From Pseudofrankia inefficax (GTDB lineage: Bacteria > Actinomycetota > Actinomycetes > Frankiales > Frankiaceae): a stretch of DNA of 64,000 nucleotides. A program made the position numbers and the translations under genes. The stretch covers positions 8,370,001 through 8,434,000 of the forward strand of contig NC_014666.1 of NCBI RefSeq assembly GCF_000166135.1, given 5' to 3'. Shown here piece after piece: positions 18,922 to 51,196 of this stretch (its first letter is position 1; each line of letters starts with the position of its first letter). Under the pieces are notes generated by a model. That model made no database searches. It was not told the origin of the DNA and saw only the letters and a program-made list of their open reading frames with translations.

Positions 18922-19000
18922 CATGATCGCGGTTCGAGCCCTGGGACGGTCGCGGAAACGCCCTCGTCACGACCATCCCAGGGCCAGAACCGCGATCATG
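18922..19000. repeat. Dispersed palindromic element, copy 1
   Basis: Arms of 31 bases match at 28 positions; the outer 14 (CATGATCGCGGTTC) are perfect. It belongs to a family also found at 23790, 44058, 46199, 48535 and 51120. This copy is one of the most nearly perfect hairpins. Confidence 0.85.
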
Positions 19001-19251
19001 ACCACACGAGAGCGCCGACCCACGGGCGAGCACAGGTCTAGGCCAGCCAGGCCCGCCGAATAGGCCAGCAGGGTCCGCTGGAGGGCGAAAAGGACGATCT
19101 AGGGACGACTGGCCCACCGGAGGGCGGGGCGTTCGCCGGGCTACGGCCGGCCGGAGGGCCCTGGAGCCCAGACGCCGAGATCAGCGCTGGCGGATCTCCC
19201 GCGTACCAGCCGAGGGCCTGGGCCCCGGCGTCAAGATCGGCGCTGGCGGGC

Positions 19252-19257
19252 TATGCT
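19252..19257 (+). promoter_or_regulatory. -10 box of the SRP RNA gene
   Basis: TATGCT ends 4-6 bases before the predicted 5' end of the SRP RNA. The 60 bases upstream hold two diverged copies of AGATCNGCGCTGGCGG. Confidence 0.55.
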
Positions 19258-19261
19258 GCGT

Positions 19262-19358
19262 GGCAGACCCCTCGTGCGGCGTCATCCTCGTGAACCTCCC
19301 CAGGGCCGGAAGGCAGCAAGGATAAGCGGGCTCTGGCGGGTGTGCGGGGGGTCCTCTC
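19262..19358 (+). ncRNA. ffs: Small SRP RNA (4.5S-type)
   Basis: The hallmark domain IV apical segment GGGCCGGAAGGCAGCAAGG is present at about 19302-19320, and the ends pair (GACCCCTCGTGCG near the 5' end with GTGCGGGGGGTC near the 3' end) to give a single long hairpin. It binds Ffh and directs membrane-protein targeting. Its place just upstream of dnaX is conserved in actinobacteria. Confidence 0.9.
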
Positions 19359-19416
19359 GTTGACCGGCCGCCGGCCGGAAGGCCGGGCGAGTCCAGGCCT
19401 GCCTAGACTCGGCGCG

Positions 19417-19965
19417 GTGTTCGATTCGCCCGCTTCGTCCACCACGGCTGCTGGTGGCATCCAGTTGATGTTCCTGCTCAGCCCCGACGAGCTCGCGACG
19501 GCCGCCGCCTCGCGGATCCGGTCCCAGGTGCGGCGGATTCGCATCATCGCGGCAGTGGTCGTGCCCGTGGTTGTGCTGCTGGTCGGGGTATCGACGTCGC
19601 TTCCGGCCGCGATCGCCGTCGCCTTCGTGGGGGCGTTCTACTACTGCCTGATCTTCTGGCGGTTGTCGCCGCGGCGGGCCGGGCGGGCGGCGGTGCGCCG
19701 CCAGCTGGCCGACAACCCTTTCCTCACCGGCTCGTTCACGGTCGACGTCGAGCCTGCCGGAGTGCGGGTGCAGACCGCGACAAGCTCCGCGGCGTTCGCG
19801 TGGGCGCACTTCCCCTATCGGGCTCAGGCTGATGGCCTCATCCTGCTGCTGACCGGCCCCGGCCGGGGCGCCACGGGCCAGCCACTGCCGCTGCGGGCGG
19901 TCGCGGAGGCCCACCGGCCGCACCTGCTCGGCCTCCTGGCCGGACATACCCAGCTGATCAGCTGA
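19417..19965 (+). CDS. YcxB-like membrane protein
   Basis: The 182-residue protein has two hydrophobic segments (about 48-85) followed by a beta-rich soluble domain (SFTVDVEPAGVRVQT, then AFAWAHFPYRAQADGLIL) resembling the YcxB-like domain of bacterial membrane proteins. TAGACT at 19404-19409 sits 7 bases before the GTG, suggesting a leaderless mRNA starting at 19417. An ATG at 19468 would shorten it by 17 residues. The role is unknown. Confidence 0.65.
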   Translation: MFDSPASSTTAAGGIQLMFLLSPDELATAAASRIRSQVRRIRIIAAVVVPVVVLLVGVSTSLPAAIAVAFVGAFYYCLIFWRLSPRRAGRAAVRRQLADNPFLTGSFTVDVEPAGVRVQTATSSAAFAWAHFPYRAQADGLILLLTGPGRGATGQPLPLRAVAEAHRPHLLGLLAGHTQLIS

Positions 19966-20126
19966 CCGGGGCCGCGGGGGACCCAGGGTCGGACGCCGGG
20001 AGACCTCGGCGGCAGGGCTCGTAGTGGCCCGGACGGACGCCCGCGGCAGGAGGGGACAATGGGCACCGCTCGCGACGTAGGCGAGCTGGTTGGGCCAGCC
20101 GGGGAGACGGGCGGGGAGACGGGCCA

Positions 20127-22628
20127 GTGAGCACAGCGCTGTACAACCGGTACCGGCCCGCGACATTCAGCCAGGTCGTGGGCCAGGAGCACGTGACCTC
20201 CGCCCTCATGCAGGCGCTGCGGACCGGGCGGCTACACCACGCCTACCTGTTCAGCGGCCCGCGTGGCTGTGGGAAGACGTCGTCGGCCCGGATCCTCGCC
20301 GCGTCGCTGAACTGCGAGAAGGGGCCGACCCCGGATCCGTGCGGGGTCTGCGACCAGTGCGTGTCGATCCGCACCGGCTCGTCGATGGACGTCACCGAGA
20401 TCGACGCCGCCTCGCACGGTCTCGTCGACGACGCCCGTGACCTGCGCGAGAGGGCCTTCTTCGCGCCCGCGTCGGCCCGTTTCAAGATCTTCGTGGTGGA
20501 CGAGGCGCACATGGTCACGGCAGCCGCGTTCAACGCGCTGCTCAAGGTCGTCGAGGAGCCGCCGTCCTACCTGAAGTTCGTCTTCGCCACCACCGAGCCA
20601 GACAAGGTGATCGCCACCATCCGGTCCCGCACGCACCACTACGCGTTCCGGCTGGTGCCGCCGGGGGTGCTACGCGACCACCTGGCCTCGGTGGCCGCGC
20701 AGGAGGGCGTCGACGTCGACCCGGCGGTGCTGCCGCTGGTGGTCCGGGCCGGCGCCGGCTCGGTGCGCGACTCGCTGTCGGTGCTCGATCAGCTGCTCGC
20801 CGGCGCCGGCTCGGACGGGCTGCGTTACGACCGCGCGGTGGCCCTGCTCGGCATGACCGACGGCGTGCTGTTGGACGAGACCGTCGACGCGCTGGCGGCT
20901 CGGGACGGCGCGACCCTGTTCACCGTCGTCGACAAGGTCGTCGGCTCGGGGCACGACCCGCGTCGGTTCACCGCCGACCTGCTCGACCGGATGCGCGACC
21001 TGATCATGATCAAGGCGGTGCCGGACGCGGTCGAGCGGGGGCTGCTGGATGCATTCTCCGCCGACCAGATCGAGCGGATGAAGGCGCAGGCCGGCCGGGT
21101 CGGCCCGGCCGAGCTGTCCCGGACCGCGGACGTGCTGCACGCCGGCCTCGCGGAGATGCGAGGGACGGCCAGCCCGCGGCTGTTGCTCGAGCTGGTCGTG
21201 GCGCGGGCCCTCCTTCCCGCCGCCGCGGCAGGAGATCCGGCCGCCCTGCTGACCCGGCTGGAACGGCTGGAGCGCGGCCTCGCCGCCGGCCCGCCGCCGG
21301 CAGCCGCCGCGGCGCGGGCCGGGGGCCCGCTCACCCCCGCCGGGCCAGGTGCCCCGGACGTGCCGCCCGCCCCCGCGAGACCGCCCGCCCCCGCCGCCGA
21401 GCCTGCCGGGTCGCCCCGGCAGGACACGTCATGGGCGCAGCCCCCGGCGGCCCCGGCCGGACCGATGCCCGCGCCCGCGGCCCAGCCGTCCGCCGCCCAG
21501 CAGGCCGGCGGCTGGAGCGGCGGCCCGAGCACGTCACCCGGCCGGCCAGGTGGCCCGCCTCCCCCAGCCCCACAGACACCACCAGCCCCACAGGCGCCAG
21601 CCCCTCAGGCGCCAGCCGCCCAGCCGGCGGTCGCCCAGCCGGCCCCTGCCGCGGCCGGTGGCGAGGGCGCCGAGGCGGCCACCGTGCGGGCCGTGTGGGA
21701 CCAGGTGCTCGCGGCGACCCGGCGGCGTAAGCAGACGACGTTCGCCCTGCTCACCGAGTACGCCAGCGTCCTTGACGCCCGCGGCGGCGAGCTGTTCCTC
21801 GCCTTCTCGGCGCCGCGGATCGCGCAGATGTTCGGCCAGGGCAGCCATATCGACGTGCTCTGCGAGGCGCTCGCCGAGCAGCTCGGCGGTGGCTGGCGCG
21901 TGACGATCGGGGAGCCCGGCGGCGGCCGCCCGGCCGGCGGCTCCCGTGGCGGGCCGAACCGACCGCCGGTCGCACCATCCGGCGGTGGCTTCCCGTCGGC
22001 GTCCGGGGGCCGGCCCAACCCGACCCCGCCGCCGAACTCCACCCCCCGACCGCCGGCCGGATTCACTCCAGCCACGCCCGGCGGCGGTCTTGCCTCCCAG
22101 ACCTCAGGCGGCTTCGACACGGCCGCCTCGCTGGGCGGCGGTGCGCCGTCGGGGCTGGGCACCGGTGGGGCGGCGGCGCTGGGCGGGTACGGCAGCGGCG
22201 GGGGCCCGGGCGGCGGTCCGGTCTCGTCGGCTTCCGGCCCCGCCGTCGCCACCGCTGTCCGGGGGCCGCTCGGTCCAGGCCTGGACGCGTCCGCCGGCAG
22301 CCCGCACCAGGCCCAGGTCGCGCCTGGTGCTGGCCACCCGGGGATCGGGACGTCCGCCTATGCCCACCAGGCCGGCGCCAGCCTGGCGGGCGCGCCCTCC
22401 GGCGGCGGCATCGTCCCGCTCGGCGGCCACCTGGGCGGCGCAGCACCGGCCGCCGCCGACCTGGCCACCGCGGGGGTCGCCGCGCCGAGCACAGCCGACG
22501 AGCCCTCCCTGGACGACGACGACGCTCCCGCCCACGCGGGCTCGACGCTCTCGGGTGAGGCCGCCGCCATGGAGCTCCTGCGGGTCGGGCTAGGCGCCAC
22601 CGTCATGGAGCAGCGCGGCGCCAGCTGA
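20127..22628 (+). CDS. dnaX: DNA polymerase III subunit gamma/tau
   Basis: The 833-residue protein opens [18 protein letters not shown] and carries Walker [11 protein letters not shown] (about 44), the zinc module [17 protein letters not shown], Walker B VVDEAHMV and the clamp-loader arginine-finger region. The C-terminal half is a long Pro/Ala/Gly-rich linker with a tau-like segment around 490-560. It is the clamp-loader ATPase that loads the beta clamp and tethers polymerase and helicase. The GTG start follows GGGGAG. Confidence 0.95.
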
Positions 22629-22660
22629 ACGTGTCGTACCCGGGACGTAGGCTCATGGTC

Positions 22661-23110
22661 ATGTCGAGCCCAGGCGAGCCGTTCGGAAACACGTGGCCTG
22701 CTGGAAATTCGGGCCCTGCTGGAAATCCAGGGCCGGCCGGCGGGCTGGGCGACGGGATCGGCGGCTTCGGTGCGATCTTCGAGCAGGCGCAGAAGATGCA
22801 GGCCGCGATGGTCGCCGCGCAGCGCGAGCTGGCCGAGGCCCGGGTCGACGGCAGCGCCGGCGGCGGCCTCGTGACGGCGACGGTCAACGGCGGCGGCGAG
22901 CTGGTCGCGTTGACGATCAGTCCGAAGGCGGTAGACCCCGAGGACACCGAGACGCTGGCCGACCTGGTGCTGGCCGCCGTCCGGGACGCGACGACGAACG
23001 CCCACAAGCTGGCCGAGGAGAAGATGGCCGGCGTGACCGGCGGCCTCGGCGGCATGCTCGGCGGGGGGCTGCCGGGCCTGCCCGGTGGGATCCCCGGGCT
23101 CGGCGGCTGA
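22661..23110 (+). CDS. YbaB/EbfC nucleoid-associated protein
   Basis: The 149-residue product has the EbfC core [20 protein letters not shown], a [20 protein letters not shown] sheet and the C-terminal helix [16 protein letters not shown], framed by Gly/Pro-rich tails. EbfC dimers bind DNA and shape the nucleoid; the gene is conserved between dnaX and recR. TAGGCT at 22648-22653 lies 7 bases before the ATG at 22661, which suggests leaderless translation. GTG 22631 and ATG 22655 are alternatives. Confidence 0.88.
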
Positions 23111-23165
23111 GTGACGACCAGGCGTTGGACGACGGCGCCGACGGCGCGGGAACGGTAAGGCACAC

Positions 23166-23765
23166 GTGTACGAAGGCGTCGTCCAGGACCTGATCGACGA
23201 GCTCGGGGCGCTGCCCGGGATCGGCCCGAAGAGCGCGCAGCGCATCGCGTTCCACATCCTCGCGGCGGATCCGGCCGACGTCCGGCGGCTGGCCAAGGCG
23301 CTGCTCGAGGTGAAGGAGAAGGTCCAGTTCTGCCGGATCTGCTTCAACGTGGCCCAGGCCGAGCTGTGCCGGATCTGCGCTGACCCGCGTCGCGACACCA
23401 CGGTGATCTGCGTCGTCGAGGAGTCGAAGGACGTCGTCGCGGTCGAGCGCACCCGGGAGTTCCGCGGCAGGTATCACGTGCTCGGTGGGGCGATCAACCC
23501 GATCGGCGGGGTCGGCCCGGACGACCTGCACATCCGTGAACTGATCGCGCGGCTGGCGGATGGCACCGTCACGGAGCTGATCCTCGCGACCGACCCGAAC
23601 ACCGAGGGCGAGGTCACCGCGAGCTACCTGGCTCGTCAGATCGGCCCGATGGGCCTGACAGTGAGCCGGCTGGCCAGCGGTCTGCCGATGGGCGGCGACC
23701 TGGAGTGGGCCGACGAGGTCACCCTTGGCCGCGCCTTCGAGGGCCGCCGCGTCGTCGCCGGCTAG
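23166..23765 (+). CDS. recR: Recombination mediator RecR
   Basis: The 199-residue protein has the N-terminal HhH motif ([17 protein letters not shown]), the four-Cys zinc finger ([16 protein letters not shown]), a Toprim domain ([14 protein letters not shown] and [14 protein letters not shown]) and the C-terminal [16 protein letters not shown]. With RecO and RecF it loads RecA at gaps. Length is standard. It starts at GTG 23166 and ends the dnaX-ebfC-recR cluster. Confidence 0.96.
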
Positions 23766-23789
23766 CCAGCCCGCCTCCGCCGCCAGTCC

Positions 23790-23864
23790 TGATCGCCGTT
23801 TCGGCCCTCGGGTGGTCATGACCGGGCCCGTTCTGCAGCCATCAGAGGGCGAAAACGGCGATCT
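23790..23864. repeat. Dispersed palindromic element, copy 2
   Basis: Begins TGATCGCCGTTTCGGCCCTC and ends with the diverged complement AGGGCGAAAACGGCGATC. It lies 25 bases past recR and may also end its transcript. The bases after it resemble those after copy 4. Confidence 0.8.
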
Positions 23865-23918
23865 TGGCGACGGGCCGATCTTGCGGCCGGCCGTACTGGA
23901 GAATCCGGCGCGGCCGGG

Positions 23919-24671
23919 TCAGAAGCCGAGGATGGGCGCGTACGTCGAGCTGGGCAGGGACGCCAGGGTCGCGAGGACGACGCTGACGTCGAGCTCGTCG
24001 GCGCCAGGCTCGAAGTGGCCGAGCATGCCACGGGTCAGGTAGACCGGGCGGTCGCCGCGGCTGACCCGGACGCCGAAGACGCCGGTCGCCCGCAGCCACC
24101 AGACCCGGTCGCCGGCGCGGATGCGGACCTGCCGGTTACCCCGGCGCAGGCCGGTCGTCGCCCTGGTCAGCCGGCCCGCGTCGGCCGGCGGGCGGGCCGG
24201 CTGGTCGAGACTTCCGACGATGTCCCGGTCCGGGGCGCGTACGACCAGCCGGGCCGGGGTGTCCGCCAGCTCGATCAGTGGGCTCTCCCGAGAGACCTCC
24301 GAGCCGGCCGGCCACACCGTCGCCGGCCACACCCCCTCGCCGGCCAGCACGCGGGCACCGAGCCGGCCGGCCGCCGGGTGGCCCGGCGGCAGGAGCGCCC
24401 CGACCACGGCGCCGACCCCGTCGAGCTGCCAGGCGACCGAGACGACCGCGCCGGCGGGCAGGCCCGTCGGCCCGTGCTCGCCGCGGGCCAGACCGTCGGC
24501 GCAGCGCAGGGGCAACATCCGCACCAGCCGGGCCGGGGACGCCTCGTCGCCGGACAGCGCGGGAGCGAGGCACGCACCGCGCGGGCCCGGCGCGCCGGCG
24601 AGCCGCCGTAACCCGGCGGAGAACTGGCCCAGCGTCAGGGGGCGGGGTTCCCCGCCGGTCAGACTGACCAT
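23919..24671 (-). CDS. Hypothetical protein
   Basis: The 250-residue protein begins MVSLTGGEPRPLTLGQF, is Ala/Gly/Arg-rich, and has a beta-rich C-terminal half (VWWLRATGVFGVRV, then RPVYLTRGMLGHFEPGA). No domain is recognised; it looks like a soluble cytoplasmic protein. AAGGAGG lies 10 bases before the ATG at 24671. An ATG at 24710 with its own GGGAGG would add 13 residues. It stands alone between recR and a divergent gene. Confidence 0.65.
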   Translation of the reverse strand: MVSLTGGEPRPLTLGQFSAGLRRLAGAPGPRGACLAPALSGDEASPARLVRMLPLRCADGLARGEHGPTGLPAGAVVSVAWQLDGVGAVVGALLPPGHPAAGRLGARVLAGEGVWPATVWPAGSEVSRESPLIELADTPARLVVRAPDRDIVGSLDQPARPPADAGRLTRATTGLRRGNRQVRIRAGDRVWWLRATGVFGVRVSRGDRPVYLTRGMLGHFEPGADELDVSVVLATLASLPSSTYAPILGF

Positions 24672-24992
24672 GTCGCTGGCGCCTCCTTCGGCCGTCACCG
24701 GCGCGGGCATGGGGGCCCTCCCCCCAGTGGTCCGGCCGAACGGTCCTAGCCGACGCACGCTCCGTCGGACCGGGTCGACAGTCTGCCATCCGCCCCTTAC
24801 AGAATGCAATACCTCCTATGTCGGCGGCAGGTTCTGGCCGGAGACGGACATCGGAGCTCCTCGATCCGCGAACTCGGAATGACGATCTCGGCCCGCGGGG
24901 GCCAGCCCCACCCCGGTGGTCGTCCGCGAAGGGACGAGTGGCAGCGTGGAGTGCGCGGCCACGCGGAGCCGTCACGTCAGGAGCTGGACCAG
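24672..24992. other. Divergent promoter region
   Basis: The region separates a minus-strand and a plus-strand gene. An AT-richer stretch near 24800-24830 (CAGAATGCAATACCTCC) probably holds promoter elements. No gene is supported. Confidence 0.4.
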
Positions 24993-25493
24993 ATGATCAT
25001 CAGTTCGCACGTCGGGGCGGGCGCCTTCGTCGGCATGGCCGTCCGCCGGCCGGGAGCGGCGCTCGCCGCCGGCTTCCTGTCGCACCTCGTGATGGACGCG
25101 CTGCCGCACTGGGGCCTCGGGCCGAACACCGAGGACGAGTGGATGCCGATCGCGAAGGTGGACGGCATCGCGGGGCTGTCCGCGATGGCGCTGCTCACGG
25201 CGTCGGCGCCGGCCGAGGTCCGGCTGGCCGTGCTGGCCGGGATGACCGGCGCCTGCCTGCCGGACACGGACAAGGTCGGCCGGTTCTTCTTCGGCCAGAG
25301 CCCGTGGCCGGCCAAGTTCGACCGGTTCCACGAGCTGATCCAGAACGAGGCCCGTCACCGTCTGCCCCGCGAGGTCGTCACCGCCGCGGCGCTGACCGCC
25401 CTCGGCACGGCGGCCCTGCGGGCCTGGAAGGCGCGTGCCGCGCGGCTGGCGCCCAGCGAGCTGGAGCCCACCGAGGCGCTGGCCACGGCCTGA
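24993..25493 (+). CDS. Membrane-associated metal-dependent hydrolase-like protein
   Basis: The 166-residue product begins MIISSHVGAGAFVGMAVRRP and carries FLSHLVMDALPHWG, the H-x3-D-x3-H arrangement seen in the YdjM/DUF457 type of predicted membrane hydrolases. Two to three hydrophobic stretches follow. A second polar motif, DTDKVGRFFF, may contribute ligands. A CAGGAG lies upstream of the ATG. The substrate is unknown. Confidence 0.6.
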   Translation: MIISSHVGAGAFVGMAVRRPGAALAAGFLSHLVMDALPHWGLGPNTEDEWMPIAKVDGIAGLSAMALLTASAPAEVRLAVLAGMTGACLPDTDKVGRFFFGQSPWPAKFDRFHELIQNEARHRLPREVVTAAALTALGTAALRAWKARAARLAPSELEPTEALATA

Positions 25494-25500
25494 CCGCCGG

Positions 25501-26547
25501 TCAGCTGGCCGGATCGGGGAAGAGAACGGCGGCGCCGGTGACCCGGTCGGCCGCGAGGTCGGTCAGCGCCTGGTCGGCGGCCGCCAGCGGGTAGGCCGCG
25601 ACCGTGACCGCCAGTCGGTGCCGGGCCGCGATCTCGAGGAACTCCCGGCCGTCGGCCCTGGTGTTGGCCGTCGTGCTGCGCACCGAGCGCTCCTGGAACA
25701 GCTGCCGCTGATAGTTGAGCGTCGGGACGTCCGAGAGGTGGATCCCGGCGATGGAGAGCGTTCCGCCCCGGTCGAGCGCCTCCAGCGCGACCGGCACCAG
25801 CTCCCCCACCGGGGCGAACAGCACGGCCGCGTCCAGTGGCTCCGGCGGGGCGTCGTAGGCGCCGGTCACCGACGCGGCGCCCAGCTCGGTCGCGAGCCGC
25901 TGGGCGTCCGCGGACCGGGTCATCACATGCACGGTCGCGCCCTCGGCGAGCGCCACCTGCGCGGCGAGGTGAGCGGACGCGCCGAAGCCGTAGATCCCCA
26001 GCCTGCCGCCCGGCGGCAACTGGGCCCGGCGAAGCGCGCGGTAGCCGACGATCCCGGCGCACAGCAGCGGGGCCAACTCGCCGTCGCCGTAGCCGCTGGG
26101 CAACCGGTAGGCGTAGCCGGCGCTCACGACGGCGTACTCGGCGTAACCACCATCGACGTCCCACCCGGTGTAGGTGGACGCCGGGCAGAGATTCTCGTGG
26201 CCCCGACGGCAGTACCGGCAGCTCCCATCGGTCCCGGCCAGCCAGGCGATGCCGAGCCGGCCGTCCGGGCCGAGGCCGGGCCACAGCGCTGCCGCGTCCA
26301 CCCCCGGCCCGACGGCGTCGAGCCGGCCGACGACCTCGTGCCCCGGGATCGTGAACGGCCGGTGCGGCGCCAGATCCCCCTCGGCCAGATGCAGGTCGGT
26401 CCGGCACACCCCGCAGGCCAACACCCGCACCCGCACCTGGCCCGGCCCCGGCTCGGGCACAGGCACCTCAACCCGCCGCAGCGGCCCGCCCGCCGCCGGC
26501 CCCGGAGCCGCCACCTGCCACCCGCTCATCACGGGCCCCGCCGTCAT
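25501..26547 (-). CDS. Zinc-dependent alcohol dehydrogenase
   Basis: The 348-residue medium-chain dehydrogenase has the catalytic zinc ligands in CGVCRTDLH and GHE ([18 protein letters not shown]), a structural-zinc loop with spaced cysteines ([12 protein letters not shown]) and a Rossmann motif GIYGFGASA for NAD(P). It resembles AdhA-type broad-specificity alcohol dehydrogenases. The ATG at 26547 follows GAAGG; an upstream ATG would add 7 residues. It is convergent with the gene ending at 25493. Confidence 0.9.
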
Positions 26548-43751: not shown

Positions 43752-43754
43752 TAA

Positions 43755-43774: not shown

Positions 43775-43848
43775 ATTCGAGCCCCAGCGATTCCCCCGCC
43801 TTGATGTGACGACCGCCGCGCACCGACCCCGAGGGCCGCAGAGCCGAC

Positions 43849-43890
43849 GGCGGATGGCGGATGGCGGATGGCGGATGGCGGATGGCGGAC
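43849..43890. repeat. Heptanucleotide tandem repeat
   Basis: Five perfect copies of GGCGGAT (43849-43883) are followed by one GGCGGAC. The array is intergenic. Confidence 0.92.
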
Positions 43891-44016
43891 GGCTACGGCG
43901 GTGACGGGCGGATCGCAAGTGGCGGACGGCGGGCGGCGGAAGCACCCGGCAGCCGCGGCTCGAGCCCTCTACTGGCGACAGAAAGGCCGCCGGGACGTCC
44001 GCACGCCGGCCAAGGA

Positions 44017-44165
44017 AGTGCCGCCTCCGACAACGGCTGCCCGCTCCGAACCCCAAACATGATCGCCGTCTTGGCCCTCGGCTGGTTGCGAGACGACCCG
44101 ATTCACGACCACTTGAGGGCGAAAGCGGCGATCACTCCGCCAGGCCTGCCGTCGCGGCGACGGCG
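44017..44165. repeat. Dispersed palindromic element, copy 3 with conserved flanks
   Basis: The hairpin core spans 44058-44134 (CATGATCGCCGTCTTGGCCC outward to GCGGCGATCA). A 41-base leader (44017-44057) matches the leader of copy 5 at 36 positions, and about 30 bases after the core match too. The full unit is therefore about 145-150 bp. Confidence 0.85.
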
Positions 44166-44175
44166 CCAGGCCGTT

Positions 44176-44784
44176 TCAGCTGTCGGCGAACAGGTCGTCG
44201 AAGAGAGTTGGGGCCGGCGCGGGCAGCGCGCCTTCGATGCGAAGGATCCGCTGTTTCGTCGCGGCACCGCCGGGGGCGGAGAACCCGCCGAGCGCGCCAC
44301 CGGCGGCCAGCACCCGATGGCACGGAACGATGATCGGCACCGGGTTGCGGCCCAGCGCCTGGCCGACCGCCTGCGCCGCGCCCGGCATGCCGAGCCGGGC
44401 CGCGACCTCGCCGTAGGTCAGGGTCGACCCGGGCGGAATCGCCCGCGTCACCTCGTACACCCGCCGGTGGAAGTCAGGCATACCGTCAAGATCGACGCGG
44501 ATGTCGGCCAGGTCGATCGGCTCACCGGCGAGGAGCGCGATCATGCCGTCGATCGCCGCCGCCACCGCGGGCGGGGGTTCACCTTCCACGAAGTCCGGAT
44601 GCTCGGCCGCCAGCGAGGCCCGGGTGGCCGCGTGACCCGCGATCTCGTCGGCTCCGTCGGGCCGGGCCGGCAACGCCACGCCGACGATTACCTCGTCACG
44701 CCAGGCGACGCCGCAGCAGCCGACCGCCGTGCCGAACAGTGCGAACCCGACTCCCGCGAACCCGGTCCCAACCATGAGACCCAT
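44176..44784 (-). CDS. ogt: Methylated-DNA--protein-cysteine methyltransferase
   Basis: The 202-residue protein has the AGT/Ogt active site PVPIIVPCHRVLAAGGALGG with the acceptor Cys, the helix-turn-helix TYGEVAARLGMPGAAQAVGQ, and an N-terminal RNase H-like domain. It repairs O6-alkylguanine by irreversible self-alkylation. The ATG at 44784 is chosen; ATG 44775 is equally possible. Alone, without an Ada or AlkA partner in view. Confidence 0.92.
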   Translation of the reverse strand: MGLMVGTGFAGVGFALFGTAVGCCGVAWRDEVIVGVALPARPDGADEIAGHAATRASLAAEHPDFVEGEPPPAVAAAIDGMIALLAGEPIDLADIRVDLDGMPDFHRRVYEVTRAIPPGSTLTYGEVAARLGMPGAAQAVGQALGRNPVPIIVPCHRVLAAGGALGGFSAPGGAATKQRILRIEGALPAPAPTLFDDLFADS

Positions 44785-45106
44785 CGTGCCCGCCGGCACC
44801 GACAAATTCGGCACTGGCCACGGTCGCCCCGGGGCGCCACCCGTAGGCGTGGACCCGGCCGACTGTCGCAGGCGCGGGCCCGGCCACCCATTCGAAGAGG
44901 CGATCGACGGGCCGGCGAGACCGGTGGGCAGCAGGCGCAATGCCGCGGGCTGGCCGGCAAGGAGGGGGCCGTCGGTGGCGGCGTGCCAGCCGGGTGGCGG
45001 CGTCGAACGCGGCCGCGGGGTCGAGGCGGGCAGTGTGGGTGTGGTGGGTGTGGTGGCCGGTGTGGCGCCGATCGCCGGCGGCCCCTGGGGTCCGGACCGG
45101 GTCCGG
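44785..45106. other. Intergenic region between two minus-strand genes
   Basis: About 320 bases, very GC-rich with GGTGTGGTGGGTGTGG-like runs. No start codon with a ribosome-binding site or recognisable domain was found. Confidence 0.4.
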
Positions 45107-45754
45107 CTACTCGTGCTCGCCGCCGGCCGTGTACTGGGGTTTGACGCCGTCCGGGCGGTAGGTCTTGACGGGCGCCCCGGACGGGTCGGTGCCGAGCGTG
45201 TTGCCGCATTTCGTCGAGAACCAGTGCGTCGGGCCGGCGGTCGGCCGCCAGCTCTCGATATCGAAGGTGTCGCCGGTGGCGTAGCCCTTGCCGCCGCCGA
45301 GCGCTGGAACGAGCGCGAGCGACTCGTGGCAGCGCAACTGGTCCTGCAGGCTGGCCCCGACGGCGCCGTCCAAACCGGTGAAGCCGGCGGACGGAGTCAG
45401 GCAGCGCCGGATCGCCTGCCACATCACGTTGGTGGCCGCATCCCTGTCGCTCGCGTGCCGGCCGTCCGAGGTGGGCCGCAACGAGACCCGGAAGTCCCCG
45501 TTCGACCACTTCTCAACGGTGATCTCCGCGACGTACTGGCTCGCACCGCAGTAAGGCGCGCCATCGGCACGCGCGGCGGAGCCCGGACTGGCCAGGGGTG
45601 CCGCCGAGGGCGTCGGCGACGGGGTGTGCGAGCGGTCGGCGGCGGTGGACTCGGTCGAGGTGGCCGGCCCACAGGCCGTGGCGACCGCGGCGGTCAGCGC
45701 CAGCAATGCAACCGTCCGGATGCTGACCAGTCTGCCCGTCGACAAGCACCGCAC
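45107..45754 (-). CDS. DUF2599-domain lipoprotein
   Basis: The 215-residue protein has a signal sequence (SIRTVALLALTAAVATAC) with a lipobox-like ATAC, a Ser/Thr/Pro linker, and a DUF2599-type domain: EITVEKWSNGDFRVSLRPT, a paired-Cys segment around QAIRRCL and DQLRCHES, and DTFDIESWRPTAGP. The function of this secreted family is unknown. TAGGCT on the minus strand (45767-45762) lies 7 bases before the GTG at 45754, suggesting a leaderless start. Confidence 0.75.
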   Translation of the reverse strand: MRCLSTGRLVSIRTVALLALTAAVATACGPATSTESTAADRSHTPSPTPSAAPLASPGSAARADGAPYCGASQYVAEITVEKWSNGDFRVSLRPTSDGRHASDRDAATNVMWQAIRRCLTPSAGFTGLDGAVGASLQDQLRCHESLALVPALGGGKGYATGDTFDIESWRPTAGPTHWFSTKCGNTLGTDPSGAPVKTYRPDGVKPQYTAGGEHE

Positions 45755-45878
45755 GGCCCCGAGCCTATGGCGAGGCCACCGGTTGCGCCGCCAGGTGCCA
45801 CGCGTGACCTGCGCCCGCCTCGACCCGATCCACCGGAGTCGCCGGATTTGTCGGACGATCAGCGGGTAGGGCGGGATC

Positions 45879-46025
45879 ATGCTTGCACTCGCCGCCGCCC
45901 TTTGTTTCCTACTCGCCGCCTTCGGGGTCGACTCCTCCGATGTCAACCTCGTCTGGCTCGGACTCGCCTTCCTCGCCGCCGACTTCGCGTTCCCGTATCG
46001 CTTCAGCCAGTTCAGACGCCGGTAG
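45879..46025 (+). CDS. 48-residue two-helix membrane protein
   Basis: The product starts MLALAAALCFLLAAFGV, has a short polar turn (DSSDVN), a second helix LVWLGLAFLAADFAF and a basic tail FRRR. Miniproteins with exactly this pattern are widespread in actinobacteria. A GGCGGGA lies before the ATG and a strong hairpin follows the stop. Confidence 0.6.
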   Translation: MLALAAALCFLLAAFGVDSSDVNLVWLGLAFLAADFAFPYRFSQFRRR

Positions 46026-46059
46026 TCAGGACGGTCCCAACTCCCTGCCTCATGAGGCC

Positions 46060-46095
46060 GCCGTGCGACCTGGCCTTACCGGCGGGTCGCACGGC
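46060..46095 (+). terminator. Stem-loop terminator
   Basis: A perfect 11-bp stem (GCCGTGCGACC and its complement) with a 14-base loop lies 35 bases past the small membrane protein gene. Confidence 0.7.
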
Positions 46096-46198
46096 GCCTC
46101 AGCGCCAGGCTTTCTGGCTCCCTCGGCCCAGCGGACCAATCGCCTTTTGCCCTCCAATGCCGCCTCCGACAAGCCTCGCCCGTTCCGGGCATCCCCTT

Positions 46199-46272
46199 CA
46201 TCGCCGTTTCGGCCCTCCGGCGGCCGCTACCGGGTCTGTCTCATGGCCACCAGCGGGCGAAAACCACGATCA
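46199..46272. repeat. Dispersed palindromic element, copy 4
   Basis: Begins CATCGCCGTTTCGGCCCTCC and ends with the complement-like GGGCGAAAACCACGATC. A diverged leader (TGCCGCCTCCGACAAGCC, about 46158) links it to copies 3 and 5. Confidence 0.75.
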
Positions 46273-46306
46273 AGGCGACGTGCGGACCGTGCCGGTCACA
46301 GCGCTA

Positions 46307-46364
46307 ATGGTCGCGAATCGAGCCTGATCGCGGCCATTGGAGGGTCAGATTCGCGGTCATGATC
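46307..46364. repeat. Short variant of the palindromic element
   Basis: GGTCGCGAATC and its near complement GATTCGCGGTC frame a shorter hairpin ending CATGATC. It follows copy 4 by 35 bases and looks like a shortened family member. Confidence 0.5.
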
Positions 46365-46499
46365 TGGCCACCGAGGCAGGGCTTGGCGATGGGATCGAAA
46401 CCCGACCAAACGCCGAGCCGTGGCTGCGCATGCCGAGTCGGGGTCGAGGCCCCGACCCGGAACCCCCTACCGCGATCCGCGGGAGGCGTCAGCCGTTCC

Positions 46500-47063
46500 T
46501 TACTTGGCGGCGGCCTTCATGGCCTTTTTGAAGTCTCGGACCTGGCTGCGGGTCTCGGGGCTGGTGATGTCGGCGACCGAGCGGAGGCTGCCTACCTCGC
46601 CAAAGGGAGCGCTTGCCTCGCGCCAGCCGGCCGGCGTGACCCCAAGCTGCTTACCGAGCAGAGCAACGAAAATCTTGGCCTTCTGCTCGCCGAAGCCGGG
46701 CAGCTTGCCGATCCGGCGCAGCAGGTCCTTTCCATCGGCAGCCGTCGTCCACACCGAAGCTGCGTCACCGCCGTACTGGTCGACGAGGAGTTGGCACAGC
46801 GCCTGGACCCGCTTGGCCATCGAACCGGGGAACCGGTGCAACGCCGGCACCTGCGCGAAGACCGCGCCCAGCTCGTCCGGATCGAACGAGGCCAGCTCCG
46901 CGACGTCCAGCGACCGGCCAAGCCGCTTGGTCAGCTCCAGCGGGGCCGCGAATGCTCGCTCCAGCGGGATCTGCTGGTCGAGCACCATCCCGATCAGCAG
47001 CGCCAACGGGTCGTTCGTCAGCAGTTCGTCAGCTTCGTCTATCTGGCTCAGGTGCAGTCCCAC
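46500..47063 (-). CDS. HhH-GPD base-excision DNA glycosylase
   Basis: The 187-residue protein has the N-terminal NDPLALLIGMVLDQQIPLER and the hairpin-helix-hairpin with GPD-like loop KLPGFGEQKAKIFVALLGK. In this family the catalytic Asp usually follows the HhH; here the region reads GVTPAGWREAS without a clear Asp, so activity is uncertain. Short for the superfamily but typical of the actinobacterial HhH-GPD subgroup. Confidence 0.82.
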   Translation of the reverse strand: MGLHLSQIDEADELLTNDPLALLIGMVLDQQIPLERAFAAPLELTKRLGRSLDVAELASFDPDELGAVFAQVPALHRFPGSMAKRVQALCQLLVDQYGGDAASVWTTAADGKDLLRRIGKLPGFGEQKAKIFVALLGKQLGVTPAGWREASAPFGEVGSLRSVADITSPETRSQVRDFKKAMKAAAK

Positions 47064-47329
47064 ATCGTTACGGTAGCCGACCGTCTCGCGACCACCGCTC
47101 GACCTTCGATCAGGTCACCGTGTCGTCGGTGTACTCCCGACGGGAGCCGAGGCCGGATCCCTGGGCTACCCTGACGGTAGGGCGTGATCCACGCCTAACC
47201 TCGGAGGGTCGTCCCAGCGCGACCACGGTGAGAGGCAAAGGGGCTCCGGCCTCGGATCGTCGTCATAGGTCCGCTCGTCTCGAACGTCGACGGCCGCTGG
47301 GTGCTCGACGTCGGGACGCGGGAGAGCCG
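47064..47329. other. Divergent intergenic region
   Basis: No gene is supported. The end carries GGGAGAG, the ribosome-binding site for the ATG at 47330. Confidence 0.4.
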
Positions 47330-48312
47330 ATGACGGCGAACAAGGCGTTCAAGCAGCGCGTGCGCGAACGAGCGCGCAGGACGGGCGAGTCCTACACCGC
47401 CGCGCTTCGGCACTTCCGGCAGCCCTCCGAAGGAATCGCCGTGCCGAACACCAATCCCTTCCGGATTTCGGTCGCCCAGCTCGACGCACCCACGGATCCT
47501 CGTGATGCCGCCGCGTTTCACCGGGTGGGCCACGATGTGCGCCGCCTGATGACCGAGGCCCGCGATCAAGGCGCTCGCCTCATTCATTTCTGCGAGGGGG
47601 CACTCTTTGCTCGCCGAACAAGCGGATCCTGTCCAGCGATCCGACCACCATGGCGGACGCCGACTGGAGCCGCTTCGACTGGGCGGCTCAGCGCGACCAG
47701 CTTGCGGCGATCAGGAAACACGCCGCGGCATTGCGTCTGTGGACAGTCGTGGGAGCAGTTCACCAACTCACCGAGCCGCATCGTCCGCACAACAGCCTTT
47801 ACGTGATCGACGACCACGGCCGTATCATCACCCGCTACGACGAACGGATGCTGTCCAACACCAAGGTTAGCTATTTGTACACTCCCGGCACCACGCCGGT
47901 CACCTTCGACGTCGACGAGGTGCGGTTCGGGTGCGCGCTCGGGATGGAAAGCCAGTATCCGGAGCTGTTCGCCGAGTACGAGCGAGCTGACGTTCACTGC
48001 GTGCTGCTCTCCACCATGGACAATGGCACCGTCTTCGGCCTGCAGACACAGGCGCACGCCAGCACCAACAGCTACTGGGTCAGCTATGCCACGGTCGCCG
48101 CCGACGCTGCCGCCGCGCCATCCGGAGTCGCCGGGCCTGACGGCCGCTGGGCGACCCGATGCGGACCGGACGCCACCACGGCCCTCGCCACCGTCGACAT
48201 GGACCGCGAACATGAAGGCCTCGCGCGTCCCTGGCGGCGGACGGCCCGCGCCGGCAGGTACGCCAGCGCGGTCGTCGACGACGATCCTCGAGCACAACGA
48301 AGCTCGCTCTGA
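47330..48312 (+). pseudogene. Frameshifted carbon-nitrogen hydrolase (nitrilase family) with N-terminal leader
   Basis: The first frame encodes a 30-residue leader (MTANKAFKQRVRERARRTGE onward), then nitrilase strands (FRISVAQLDAPTD) and the catalytic Glu in HFCEGAL. At about 47610 the homology moves to another frame: SPNKRILSSDP, HNSLYVIDDHGRIITRYDER, the nucleophile Cys in FGCALGMESQ, and ARPWRRTARAGRY at the end. One missing or two extra bases explain it. The catalytic Lys expected in YDKR is Glu (YDER). The frameshift plus the lost Lys point to a decaying gene. Confidence 0.75.
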
Positions 48313-48389
48313 CGCCAAGGACGCTACGGGCGCCCGGAGCGTTCGCCCATCCCGGGTAGACGCTCCGGAGCATCCACCCGCGCTACCGG

Positions 48390-48701
48390 TTAGATCAGCA
48401 GGTAGTCAGTGTCGTCGCGGTAGGCCTCGTAGGCGTCGCCATCCAGGTAGTGGCACCACGGAAGCTGCGAATCAGAGAAGCCCGCCGATAACTAGTGCCG
48501 CCTCGGACAACGTCTACTCGCTCCGATCCCCAAACATGATCGCCGCTTCAGCCCTAAGACGGTTGTGACCAGGGCCGATACACGACCACCTGAGAGCGAA
48601 AACGGCGATCGCTCCGCCAGGCCGGCCTTCGCCGTCACGGCACTGGACGCCTTACCGGCGGCGGGCCTCTCGACCTTCGCGAGATCGCTGAAAGTTCCCA
48701 C
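48390..48701 (-). pseudogene. Gene remnant interrupted by a palindromic element
   Basis: On the minus strand a GTG at 48701 (preceded by TACTGT) opens VGTFSDLAKVERPAAGKASS. The frame then enters repeat copy 5. On the far side a startless fragment reads SDSQLPWCHYLDGD, AYEAYRDDTDYLLI and a stop at 48390. The fragment ends within 3 bases of the repeat boundary. The two pieces may be one gene split by the repeat, or two unrelated scraps. No family is recognised. Confidence 0.4.
48494..48642. repeat. Dispersed palindromic element, copy 5 with conserved flanks
   Basis: Leader 48494-48534, hairpin core 48535-48610 (CATGATCGCCGCTTCAGCCC outward to AAAACGGCGATC) and a trailer beginning CTCCGCCAGGCC shared with copy 3. 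Confidence 0.85.
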
Positions 48702-48796
48702 CCCTTGGGGATACAGTAGCGTCGTCGCACCGGATACCGGCCGTCTGTCCAGGACGGGCGGTCGACTCGGCGCGCGACAAAGGCGATTGATCGGCC

Positions 48797-49846
48797 GTGA
48801 TCCGTCATCTTCGTCGGCAGGAACAGGCAACAGACGTGGGCGAGTTACTGGTGACGCCGTGGCGCCGGTTTGGGCACGACCGGCTTTACGTGAATCTTCC
48901 GGACGGACAGAGTGCCGCGTGGTTCGACCTGCGCACCGGTCAGACCACCATCCTGCTGGACGCATATCGGGACGCGGCGCACGACGCGCTTGCCTCCTAC
49001 CTGGAAAAATCTTCGGAGCCCGCGGGCTACCCACTGCCGCCGCCACCCACGCGGTCGTCACCACCACCCGTGTCTCCGCCGGCACCGCTAACGGGATGGA
49101 CACCGGAGGTACCGGAGCCAACAGGCTCCTGGCCCGTGCCGGAGCAGCCTGCGTCGCAGCCCGGTTCGCCGCCCGCGCGGCCCCCAGCCGCCCGCAGCCC
49201 GGTCCGTGCGGCAGGCGGTCCCACGGACGACCTCGCCGCCAATCTGCCCGGCGCCGCGCTCCGCGCGAAGATCGAGGAGTTGACGCCGGGTTTCTGGCGG
49301 GCCCTGCTCAACCGTTTACTCCACCGGCCGGCGGAGACCGACGGATGGAGCAAGGGGCTGATCGGAGAGGAGATGGCGGGTGCCGAACTGGCCCGGCTCA
49401 CCACATGGGGCTGGCTGGTGCTGCATTCGATACCGCTGCCCCGGGACGTGGACATCGATCACCTGCTGATCGGCCCCGGCGGTGTGTTCACCATCAACAC
49501 GAAGCACCACGTCGGCGCCAGAGTCTGGGTGGGTGACCACGCGGTGAAAGTCGGTGGCCAGTCGCATCAATACCCGCGCAAGGCCCGCGCCGAGGCCAGT
49601 CGAGCGTCAGCCGCGCTGAGCCGGGCCTGCGGATTTGATGTGCCGGTGGAGGCAGTGCTGGCGTTCGTCGCACCGGAGAAGCTGACTTCATCTCCTCCGC
49701 GCGCGGAGGGTGATCTCATCCGTCTACATGCCATCCGTCACAGCCAGTTCATCACCTTCAAGGATTTCCCCACGGTATGGGACCGGCACCAGGTCGAACA
49801 GATCCACGCCGCGGCGCGCGACCGTCAGAACTGGCTGGACGCCTGA
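48797..49846 (+). CDS. NERD-domain protein
   Basis: The 349-residue protein has an N-terminal domain of about 75 residues (WRRFGHDRLYVNLPDG, AAWFDLRTGQTTI), a Pro-rich linker, and a NERD (nuclease-related) domain: GEEMAGAELARLTTWGWLVL, DVDIDHLLIGPGGVFTINTK with the D and K of a restriction-like fold, and VEAVLAFVAPEKL. A role in DNA processing or defence is possible but unproven. It starts at GTG 48797 without a strong ribosome-binding site. Confidence 0.82.
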   Translation: MIRHLRRQEQATDVGELLVTPWRRFGHDRLYVNLPDGQSAAWFDLRTGQTTILLDAYRDAAHDALASYLEKSSEPAGYPLPPPPTRSSPPPVSPPAPLTGWTPEVPEPTGSWPVPEQPASQPGSPPARPPAARSPVRAAGGPTDDLAANLPGAALRAKIEELTPGFWRALLNRLLHRPAETDGWSKGLIGEEMAGAELARLTTWGWLVLHSIPLPRDVDIDHLLIGPGGVFTINTKHHVGARVWVGDHAVKVGGQSHQYPRKARAEASRASAALSRACGFDVPVEAVLAFVAPEKLTSSPPRAEGDLIRLHAIRHSQFITFKDFPTVWDRHQVEQIHAAARDRQNWLDA

Positions 49847-49967
49847 GCTGGACCTGCCGGTCACCCAGTTCCCGACGGCGACCGGCAGGACGGGGCCCAG
49901 GCTCACCCGGATGCCTTCCGCTGACGCGACACATCGGCCGGGCATCCAGCCATCCGGGCGGTGGCGC

Positions 49968-50135
49968 TCACCCGAGGCACGCCGCGAACACGCGAATCTC
50001 CCGGGCGACGGCGACCGGACGCTCCTGATGCACCATGTGGCCGGCCTTCTCGATGATCACGGGCCCGGCGGGTATAGGGCCGGCGGGCGCCAGGGCAGCG
50101 AGCGTCTCGGCGACGTGGACTGGTACAACGGAGGA
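49968..50135 (-). pseudogene. C-terminal fragment of an alpha/beta hydrolase
   Basis: The minus strand reads DSSVVPVHVAETLAALAPAG, then PVIIEKAGHMVHQERP and VAREIRVF, then stops at 49968. This is the last part of an alpha/beta hydrolase, with the catalytic His in AGHM. The frame has no start; homology ends within a few bases of the LysR start at 50141. The N-terminal part is absent, so it is a truncated remnant. Confidence 0.7.
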
Positions 50136-50140
50136 ATCGC

Positions 50141-51079
50141 GTGGAGCTGCGCCAGCTGCGGTACTTCGTCGCGGTCGCCGAGCATCGTCATTTCGGGCGG
50201 GCGGCGCAGCAACTGCACATCGTGCAACCGGCGGTAAGCCAGCAGGTCCAGCGGCTGGAACGCGAGCTGGGCCTGCCGCTGCTGGACCGGACGACCCGCC
50301 GCGTCGCGCTGACCAGCGCGGGTGAACGCTTCCTGGACCACGCCCGCGAGGTGATCGATGCCGCCGACCGGGCCCAGGCGGCGATGCGGCTGCTGCGCGC
50401 CGAGGCGCCGGCGGAGCTGCGCCTTGGCACCACGACCGGCCTCGGCGGACACCTCGCCCGCGCCCTCGACGAGTTCGCGCGACGCCGGCCCGGCGTCCGG
50501 GTGGAGCTGTCGCGGCTGCCCGAGGAGGAACGTCTGGCCCGGGTGTCCGACGGAGACCTGCATGCCGCGTTCGTCCGGCGGCGAGCCGACGCGGCGGTCC
50601 CTCGCGGGCTCGTGATGGCCGATGTGCTGACAGACCCGCTGGTGGCCGCTCTCCCGCAGGACGCCACGACTCCCCGTCGCCGGACGGTCCGGCTCGCGGA
50701 GCTCGCGCCGTTGTCGATCCGGCTGCCCGAGCGGCAGGCGAACCCCCTGCTCGTCGACGCCGTCACGCAGGCGTGCCGGCAGGCCGGCTTCGAGCCGAGG
50801 TTCGCCCCGGCCGGTGACGATCAGGACACGCTGGCGCTGATCGCGGCGGGCCGGTCGAGCTGGACGGTGTTCTTCTCCCCCAAGGCCGAGCTGCTGGAGC
50901 GCCAGGGCCTGCCCGGTGTCGCGTTCCGACGGATCGCCGCGCCGCGCATCACGATCGTCACCGCCCTCGTCTATCGCCGCGCGGGCGGGCATCCCGCGGT
51001 CGGCGACCTCGCCGACGCCGTGCGCGCCACCTGCCCGCCGCTCACGTCCTCGGACCTGGCCCGCCCCGCGTTGAGCTAG
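50141..51079 (+). CDS. LysR-family transcriptional regulator
   Basis: The 312-residue protein has the LysR helix-turn-helix (MELRQLRYFVAVAEHRHFGR, VQPAVSQQVQRLERELG) and a periplasmic-binding-like effector domain (RLGTTTGLGGHLARAL). The GTG follows GGAGG. LysR genes usually control a divergent neighbour; here the divergent gene is only a hydrolase fragment, so its original target may be lost. Confidence 0.93.
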   Translation: MELRQLRYFVAVAEHRHFGRAAQQLHIVQPAVSQQVQRLERELGLPLLDRTTRRVALTSAGERFLDHAREVIDAADRAQAAMRLLRAEAPAELRLGTTTGLGGHLARALDEFARRRPGVRVELSRLPEEERLARVSDGDLHAAFVRRRADAAVPRGLVMADVLTDPLVAALPQDATTPRRRTVRLAELAPLSIRLPERQANPLLVDAVTQACRQAGFEPRFAPAGDDQDTLALIAAGRSSWTVFFSPKAELLERQGLPGVAFRRIAAPRITIVTALVYRRAGGHPAVGDLADAVRATCPPLTSSDLARPALS

Positions 51080-51119
51080 GGCCGGGCCCGCGAAGGTCGG
51101 CCCGCGCCGCACCTCGGAC

Positions 51120-51196
51120 CATGATCGCGAGTTTGGCCCCGAAATGGTTGCGACCAGTGCCGATTCACGACCACCAGAGGGCCAAAACGGCGATCA
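51120..51196. repeat. Dispersed palindromic element, copy 6
   Basis: Begins CATGATCGCGAGTTTGGCCC and ends AGGGCCAAAACGGCGATC, with CGATTCACGACCACC in the right arm as in copy 3. It lies 40 bases after the LysR gene. Confidence 0.85.

What the first reader, a model, noticed from the sequence alone, without database searches (positions are those of the whole stretch)
18922..51196. Family of dispersed 75-80 bp intergenic palindromes
Six copies (18922, 23790, 44058, 46199, 48535, 51120) and a short variant (46307) share the arm consensus TGATCGCCGTTTTGGCCCTC and its complement. All lie between genes and none lies inside the AICE. Copies 3 and 5 share a 41-base leader (36 matches) and a trailer, giving a unit of about 150 bp; copies 2 and 4 share another trailer. 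This looks like a non-autonomous mobile or REP-like family, possibly moved by a transposase elsewhere or acting as terminators.
Basis: seen in the sequence. Interest (0 to 1): 0.7.

Follow-up and report, generated by a model that had tools for sequence, protein, structure and literature searches.

The report
Palindromic mobile repeats, targets for transposons
The repeated palindromes between genes are copies of a small non-coding mobile element of a genus of soil actinobacteria, and their arms are landing sites for a second kind of transposon, some copies of which carry the same palindrome inside them.

Summary
All six copies are real, 79-83 bp, intergenic and homologous; the short variant near 46307 is a different palindrome. 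Evenly spaced samples give 45 sites in 1.2 Mb, about 330 per genome. Seven of eight congeneric genomes carry the family; 0 of 11 other genomes of the bacterial family do. It is mobile: species comparison shows occupied and empty sites (the copy at 51120 is absent in a relative; the reverse occurs near 56671). Many copies are the centre of a ~150-bp, palindromic, MITE-like unit (M1) with CTAG edges. The copy at 18922 differs: it is cargo of another element (M2A) with the ends of IS1182-family insertion sequences, lying inside an older palindrome. In relatives, ~150-bp IS1182-type MITEs, and one complete IS1182-family IS, sit at nearly the same arm position, mostly with 6-bp duplications. The palindrome is thus target, and sometimes cargo, of IS1182-type elements. 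REP/RAYT mobilisation is contradicted: the transposase domain was not found in the seven carrier genomes. M1's transposase is unknown, and 29 of 50 sampled copies show no recognised vehicle. Selection as a terminator is not supported by base-pair changes, but was not tested with RNA.

The parts
18922..19000 (+). P1 palindrome, inner (cargo) copy inside a truncated M2A element; lies between a tRNA gene (18646-18730, - strand) and the SRP RNA gene (19263-19359, + strand)
19056..19075 (-). right terminal inverted repeat of the M2A element (CCGAATAGGCCAGCAGGGTC), IS1182-type end; the left part of the element is missing in this genome
19076..19099 (+). target bases (CGCTGG) and remnant of the right arm of the older, outer P1 that was the target; relative G001 has an uninterrupted palindrome here (seen by eye)
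23762..23868 (+). P1 palindrome (23786-23868) preceded by CTAG at the stop of the upstream gene; shared with G001 and G002, so older than their split
44018..44169 (+). M1 unit, B type, with P1 at 44056-44138; G002 has what looks like a degraded remnant of this B unit plus an A-type palindrome at the orthologous place
46157..46307 (+). M1 unit, D type, with P1 at 46194-46276; shared with G002, no P1 called in G001, G004 and G006
48492..48646 (+). M1 unit, B type, left edge CTAG, P1 at 48533-48615; its two flanks match different places in relatives
51076..51221 (+). M1-like unit with P1 at 51118-51200, left edge CTAG at the stop codon of the upstream gene; empty site in G002 (GGTCGAGCTAG once; here TTGAGCTAG, insert, TCGAGCTGG)
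56660..56690 (.). site without a palindrome in this genome where relative G002 carries a P1 in about 134 extra bp

Best explanation
The palindromes (P1) are copies of a genus-specific, non-autonomous transposable element. SHOWN: they are homologous, number about 330, are almost confined to intergenic space, and differ in presence between related species at orthologous sites. SHOWN: a part of them (at least 19 of 50 sampled) are the centre of a ~150-bp MITE-like unit, M1, whose consensus is one long imperfect palindrome with edges CTAG-YGCCG..CGGCR-CTAG; in the three cases that could be read the CTAG was there before insertion, twice as a stop codon. SHOWN: P1 arms are a target for elements with IS1182-family ends (GAYCCTGCTGG..CCAGCAGGRTC). 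Short MITEs (M2) in G001 and a complete IS1182-family IS in G005 lie at nearly the same arm position (between CGAC and AGGG), mostly with 6-bp duplications. SHOWN: a variant, M2A, carries its own P1 and is inserted in P1s that are uninterrupted in a sister species. INFERRED: an IS1182-type transposase moved M2 and M2A in trans; an unknown transposase moved M1; M2A hitch-hiking spreads P1 to loci that already had one, so a target is delivered for each target destroyed; the 3'-end location results from the CTAG preference plus loss of insertions in promoter regions. A matching transposase was not found in this genome, so the family is probably inactive there now.
For: Copy number and distribution: capped; 45 sites in evenly spaced stretches covering 13.6% of the genome; 7 of 8 genus genomes; 0 of 11 others of the family. 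Intergenic: 49 of 50, against 16% of random 83-mers. Empty or filled orthologous sites: w51120 empty in G002; L041:5619 and 7837 unoccupied in G001; L041:16242 empty in G001 and G002; w46199 present in G002, absent in G001; window ~56671 empty here, occupied in G002. M1 edges: (CTAG at both edges in L288 and L298), fold of the consensus -78.6 kcal/mol; CTAG already in the unoccupied relative in 3 of 3 sites where an M1 edge could be read (L041:7837, w51120, L079/L179). M2: 15 two-ended copies in G001, 12 of 15 with exact 6-bp duplications; flanks joined without the insert match P1 at 27.8 bits or more in 8 of 15; all 12 matching junctions lie at P1 columns 24-29 or 55-62. Complete IS1182-family IS in G005 inside a P1: duplication ACCGGA, joined flanks 33.1 bits, E 1.3e-10; transposase over the NF033551 cut-off, 276.6 vs 270. 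M2A filled in G002 and uninterrupted P1 in G000 at three loci; at the 18922 locus G001 has a bare palindrome, G002 an M2A in one orientation, G000 an M2A remnant in the other.
Against: 29 of 50 sampled copies have no recognisable M1 or M2A flank, so other routes of spread are open; that test is strict and misses decayed flanks. A relative of the L210 transposase was found only in G005 of 8 genus genomes, so activity in this genome is not shown. M1's transposase is not identified. 3 of 15 M2 copies have no P1 match in their joined flanks and 4 match only weakly, 8.1-14.6 bits. Of the three G002 M2A insertions only one (L122:3738) has an exact 6-bp duplication by eye; the other two are decayed. 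L210, the first IS found, has no duplication at its ends. CTAG enrichment near palindromes as a whole is modest (11 of 5,961 positions against 198 of 201,688), and w46199 against G001 could not be read to the base. The bare palindrome of G001 at the 18922 locus is recognised by eye; the P1 HMM did not call it at E 1e-4. The relatives are unnamed and mostly drafts; G002 is scored 6% contaminated.
Confidence: 0.77

Rival explanations
1. P1 is itself the mobile unit (a bare ~80-bp hairpin that moves on its own), and the M1 and M2A flanks were picked up secondarily in some subfamilies.
For: 29 of 50 copies show no recognised flank. P1 length is nearly constant, 82-84 bp in 43 of 45 sampled hits, while flanks differ among subfamilies. 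The G002 insertion at the site near window 56671 has no CTAG edge.
Against: Where edges can be read they lie 25-45 bp outside P1 (CTAG edges) or at M2A ends. Among the sites read base by base none breaks exactly at the P1 edge. No Y1 transposase found in the carriers.
Confidence: 0.14
2. The hairpins are kept by selection as transcription terminators or mRNA 3'-end protectors.
For: 19 of 49 lie between convergent genes and 2 of 49 between divergent ones, against 12.6% and 34.7% of intergenic bases and 21% and 26% of CTAG sites. Very stable fold. An IS1182-family element is known to hit terminator hairpins (PMC4923244, passages).
Against: Presence or absence differs between close species. In 12 ortholog comparisons at 10 loci, 12 pairs changed on both sides (6.6 expected), 4 of them still paired, about one third as by chance; one-sided changes broke 35 pairs and kept 31 (small data). 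Covariation in the family is only slightly above shuffles. No T-run follows (by eye). Single copies may still have been co-opted.
Confidence: 0.1
3. Classical REP or REPIN family mobilised by a RAYT (TnpA-REP) of the IS200/IS605 type.
For: High copy number, palindromic, extragenic.
Against: PF01797 not found in G000-G006; found only in G007, the one genus genome without P1 matches. The unit is 79-83 bp, not 20-40. The arm ends are TGATCGCC, not GTAG or CGTC. CTAG edges and 6-bp duplications point to DDE transposition.
Confidence: 0.03

Closest known systems
QMITE2 of Coxiella burnetii with IS1111 (review PMC10969869, passages seen)
   Same: A MITE whose palindrome is the target of an insertion sequence.
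   Different: Different IS family (IS1111 against IS1182); two target copies described in the passage against a family of about 330 here; the passage does not speak of the inserting element carrying the same palindrome.
REPs as IS targets: ISPsy8, ISPa11, ISPpu9, ISPpu10, ISRm19, ISRm22 (PMC1525189, abstract seen)
   Same: Site-specific insertion of IS elements into a dispersed extragenic palindrome.
   Different: Those are REPs of Pseudomonas and Sinorhizobium; here the palindrome is the core of a MITE-like unit in an actinobacterium, the inserting elements are mostly IS1182-type MITEs, and some carry the target.
IS1272 / TnSha1 of staphylococci, IS1182 family (PMC4923244, passages seen)
   Same: IS1182-family element that prefers hairpins, several of them terminators.
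   Different: IS1272 makes no target duplication and showed no primary sequence preference; the elements here mostly make 6-bp duplications and use one conserved position of P1.
Bacterial MITE families such as RUP, ERIC, Chunjie (named in PMC10969869 passages) and NEMIS (recalled)
   Same: Short, mostly intergenic, inverted ends, multi-copy, moved in trans.
   Different: M1 has CTAG edges and is palindromic over its whole length; no partner IS known.

Membership tests
MITE (the M1 unit holding P1) | Short, non-coding, multi-copy unit with inverted ends | tested here: met
   ~150 bp, consensus of 11 B-type copies folds on itself, edges CTAG-YGCCG / CGGCR-CTAG; about 330 P1 in all, 19 of 50 sampled with M1 flanks
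MITE (the M1 unit holding P1) | Empty sites in relatives, at a target that becomes duplicated | tested here: met
   Empty sites; CTAG present in the empty relative in 3 of 3 readable sites; CTAG on both sides in e.g. L288, L298, but decayed on one or both sides in many copies
MITE (the M1 unit holding P1) | Autonomous partner with the same ends | tested here: inconclusive
   PF13358 (IS630 type) not found in this genome; other transposase families were not searched
IS1182-derived MITE (M2) | Ends shared with an IS1182-family IS | tested here: met
   GAYCCTGCTGG ends in M2 and in 1.8-1.9-kb elements L210, L194, L264; transposases of L210 and L264 pass NF033551
IS1182-derived MITE (M2) | Constant target duplication | tested here: met
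   6 bp exact in 12 of 15 copies
IS1182-derived MITE (M2) | Transposase of the family in the same genome | tested here: not met
   Relative of the L210 transposase in 1 of 8 genus genomes (G005), not in G000, G001, G002
REP / REPIN with RAYT | Y1 (PF01797) transposase in the genome | tested here: not met
   No match in G000-G006
REP / REPIN with RAYT | 20-40 bp length, GTAG or CGTC at one end (PMC3733652, title and start of abstract seen) | tested here: not met
   79-83 bp, consensus ends CATGATCGCC / GCGATCAAG
Known RNA family (Rfam 15) | Match above gathering score | tested here: not met
   Only SRP RNA and one tRNA in the window
Intrinsic terminator | Terminates transcription in vivo | not testable with these tools
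   No RNA data; position bias only

The most novel reading that the evidence does not exclude
M2A is a mobile element that carries its own landing site. P1 and IS1182-type MITEs would then form a two-part selfish system in which the target palindrome spreads both by its own vehicle (M1, at CTAG) and as cargo of the element that hunts it.
Probability: 0.5. Interest if true: 0.72.

Novelty: new variant of a known kind. Interest (0 to 1): 0.56.

Why it matters
Why short palindromic repeats spread in bacterial genomes without a recognisable transposase is a long-standing question, and most answers that I know of concern RAYT-linked REPs. Here a REP-looking family resolves, at least in part, into the core of a MITE-like unit plus a target and cargo of IS1182-type elements, with filled and empty sites in relatives that make the order of events readable. 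It offers a non-pathogenic system, with a complete IS in one relative, to test hairpin or sequence targeting by an IS1182 transposase and whether an element that carries its own target behaves differently in a genome. The inverted gene bounded by two palindromes (L041) also suggests that these repeats shape gene order.

Tried and rejected
REP/RAYT origin: PF01797 search, rejected. IS630 (Tc1-like, TA target) as vehicle of M1, suggested by the CTAG edges: PF13358 not found in this genome. RNA function by covariation: little above shuffles and no clear compensatory pattern in orthologs. Rfam: nothing at the palindromes. An autonomous copy of M2 near the single-ended hits of G001 (L172, L173): no second end found and no transposase recognised by eye among the predicted genes (no family search was run on them). 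First reading of the M2 duplication as 4 bp (and the joined-flank test of 14 copies) was corrected to 6 bp with ends GAYCC/GGRTC (15 copies). Control of random joins: 37 of 1000 reach 20 bits, maximum 50.3, because the control loci themselves hold P1, so it is a weak control. A chi-square test failed on rounding after the counts were printed; binomial values are. The class-level hit in G025 (best E 5.3e-6, 16 matches) was not followed up. Of the 45 sampled hits, L066:4422 (53 bp) was left out of the context count and; L086:18280 (77 bp) was kept. Some further M2 ends of G001 without a partner end (e.g. L157:1347, L166, L172, L173) were left out of the 15. Literature: searches; among the papers listed (at most 20 each, of up to 100,207 holding the terms) none was on this family or on MITEs of Frankia. 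Seen beyond listings: passages of PMC4923244, PMC12306157 and PMC10969869, and abstract and outline of PMC1525189.
Full report
Identity of the genome. The window is part of a single 8,815,781-base contig with 72.5% G+C in the window. I recall that this size is that of Pseudofrankia inefficax EuI1c; no call proves the name, and only shows that the species exists in Frankiaceae.

Observation. The six window copies are real. They align with one another and with 20 further copies over 83 columns with almost no gaps. The model from that alignment finds them at E 4.2e-22 to 2.6e-13 on the better strand. Window copies were in the training set, so the independent evidence is the rest of the genome: BLAST with one copy gives 55 matches at E up to 1e-3, some on both strands of one place, with 40 of 136 candidates scored. 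The arm pattern with up to 2 mismatches occurs 260 + 270 times, against 0 + 1 for the reversed control. Sixty evenly spaced 20-kb stretches (1.2 Mb) hold 45 distinct sites with E of 5e-5 or better, which scales to about 330 per genome; two more hits at E 0.045 and 0.063 were not counted. The 'short variant' at 46307 scores 13.6 bits, E 0.39 and is a different palindrome.

Distribution. In the search of relatives the family is found in 7 of 8 genomes of the genus, in 0 of 11 other genomes of the family, and weakly (best E 5.3e-6, 16 matches, not followed up) in 1 of 12 more distant ones (at most 147 candidates scored per genome). Using a simple codon-based gene finder of my own, 49 of 50 sampled copies (44 from the stretches, 6 from the window) are intergenic, against 16% of random 83-mers. 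Of 49, 19 lie between convergent genes, 28 between tandem genes and 2 between divergent genes. Intergenic bases are divided 12.6 / 52.8 / 34.7%, and CTAG sites outside ORFs or at stops 21 / 52 / 26% (binomial p for divergent 7e-5 against CTAG sites).

Anatomy. P1 is an imperfect hairpin with a two-base mismatch at a fixed place and some further frequent mismatches. Around P1 there are subfamilies of shared flanks. B, C and D types belong to a unit of about 150 bp with edges CTAG-YGCCG and CGGCR-CTAG, often decayed. The consensus of 11 B-type copies as a whole folds into one hairpin of -78.6 kcal/mol. I call this unit M1. Of 50 copies, 19 have M1 flanks above the 99% level of random flanks, 2 have M2A flanks, and 29 have neither; the test is strict and will miss decayed flanks.

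Mobility. Orthologous sites were compared with G001, G002 and others. w51120: G002 has GGGTCGAGCTAG-CGG once; G000 has TTGAGCTAG, the insert, then TCGAGCTGG-CGG. L041:5619 and L041:7837 are both unoccupied in G001 (gaps of 11 and 56 bases), and the one junction preserved in G002 is unoccupied too. The gene between them (L041:5761-7801) is inverted in G000 relative to both. L041:16242 is empty in G001 and G002. w46199 is shared with G002 but absent in G001. w23790 is shared by G000, G001 and G002. In the other direction, the site near window 56671 is empty here and holds a P1 in about 134 extra bases in G002, and L079:776-870 is empty here where G002 has a unit ending at the same CTAG. In the three cases where an M1 edge could be read against an unoccupied relative (L041:7837, w51120, L079/L179) the CTAG is already there; w46199 against G001 could not be read to the base.

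The second element. In G001, 15 two-ended copies, most of them nearly identical, of a ~150-bp element (M2) end in GAYCCTGCTGG..CCAGCAGGRTC. Read with these ends, 12 of 15 have an exact 6-bp duplication. When the insert and one duplicate are left out, the joined flanks match the P1 profile with 27.8 bits or more in 8 of 15, with 8.1-14.6 bits in 4 and not in 3 (L153, L156, L164). All 12 junctions lie at P1 columns 24-29 or 55-62, which are, within 2 columns, mirror images of one position between CGAC and AGGG. A collection scan with the end sequence (73 loci, many in unrelated genomes and probably chance) led to 1.9-kb elements with such ends at both sides in a Pseudonocardia and a Pseudonocardiales record: L210, without a duplication, and L194, with duplication CGGGGA. 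The L210 transposase is IS1182 family (NF033551, 284 bits, cut-off 270; Pfam PF13751 and PF05598). A relative of it occurs in 1 of 8 genus genomes, G005. There a complete element (L264, 1,836 bp, duplication ACCGGA, transposase 276.6 bits against a cut-off of 270) lies in a P1: the joined flanks score 33.1 bits, E 1.3e-10. It sits about one base off the M2 position.

Target and cargo. Some P1 copies of G000 and G002 sit inside a larger element, M2A, with the same kind of ends. In G002, M2A with an inner P1 (70-75 bits) interrupts palindromes that are uninterrupted in G000 at three loci: L096:7102 vs L122:5868, L096:9024 vs L122:3738, and L049:18509 vs L180:3597; the target duplication is exact by eye at the second and decayed at the other two. 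The window copy at 18922 is such an inner P1: in G001 the place between the tRNA and SRP RNA genes holds a bare palindrome (seen by eye; the P1 HMM at E 1e-4 did not call it). In G002 the palindrome is interrupted by an M2A with CACTGG and CGCTGG at its sides, and in G000 by an M2A in the opposite orientation whose left part is missing. So the same target was hit twice, or the insert was flipped.

Function. The stem is not visibly kept by selection. Over 12 comparisons of orthologous copies (10 loci, one of them in three species) there are 90 stem substitutions; 12 pairs changed on both sides (6.6 expected from independent hits), 4 of them still paired, which is about the third expected by chance; one-sided changes kept 31 and broke 35 pairs. 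The comparison is small. The 3'-end bias can be explained in part by the CTAG target, since 124 of 1,017 predicted genes end in CTAG, and by loss of promoter insertions; a role in ending transcripts at single loci is not excluded.

Mechanism, in steps. Shown: homologous family, occupied and empty sites, M1 edges at CTAG, insertion of IS1182-type elements at one position of the P1 arm, M2A carrying P1. Inferred: transposase in trans for M2 and M2A; unknown transposase for M1; that hitch-hiking in M2A raised the number of P1; that inversions such as the one in L041 arose by recombination between palindromes. Not shown: present activity in this genome, where no such transposase was found.

Comparison. 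IS1182-family elements are reported to use hairpins: IS1272/TnSha1 inserts at hairpins, several of them terminators, without duplications or primary sequence preference, and that paper cites a review that some IS1182 members target palindromes (PMC4923244, passages). REPs are known IS targets (PMC1525189, abstract). IS1111 used a palindrome within QMITE2 of Coxiella (PMC10969869, passages). The RepRanger survey does not mention Frankia in its main text (PMC12306157, find). Among the papers listed in the searches I saw none on this family or on an element carrying its own palindromic target; most subscription journals are not in that library. I rate it a new variant of a known kind.

The number of loci was corrected to 10, the missing duplication of L210 and the decayed duplications of two M2A insertions were added, and the odds of the main reading were lowered by 0.01 in favour of the bare-hairpin rival.

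Noticed in passing
L041:5761-7801 (G000:C1:171761-173801): A ~2-kb gene segment is inverted relative to G001 and G002, with a palindrome unit at each breakpoint; G001 lacks both palindromes, and the one junction preserved in G002 lacks it too.
   Followed up: partly
window 46965-47141: A ~100-170-bp stretch matches several places in G001, G004, G005 and G006, often several times in one region: another repeat or repeated gene part.
   Followed up: no
window 44905-45092: This stretch matches a second place in this genome (4479634-4479828, 75%) and one in G002; nature unknown.
   Followed up: no
L041:11916-12033: A ~50-100-bp piece gives many 76-96% matches in G001, G003 and G006, probably a further dispersed repeat family of the genus.
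   Followed up: no
window 46309-46359: Short separate palindrome next to the D-type unit, partly conserved in G002; resembles the far left part of M2A leaders by eye.
   Followed up: partly
L158:1207-1519 (G001): Two M2 elements almost in contact within one palindrome: repeated hits on one target.
   Followed up: no
G025: 16 weak model matches (best E 5.3e-6) in a genome of another family of the class; may be an unrelated hairpin family.
   Followed up: no
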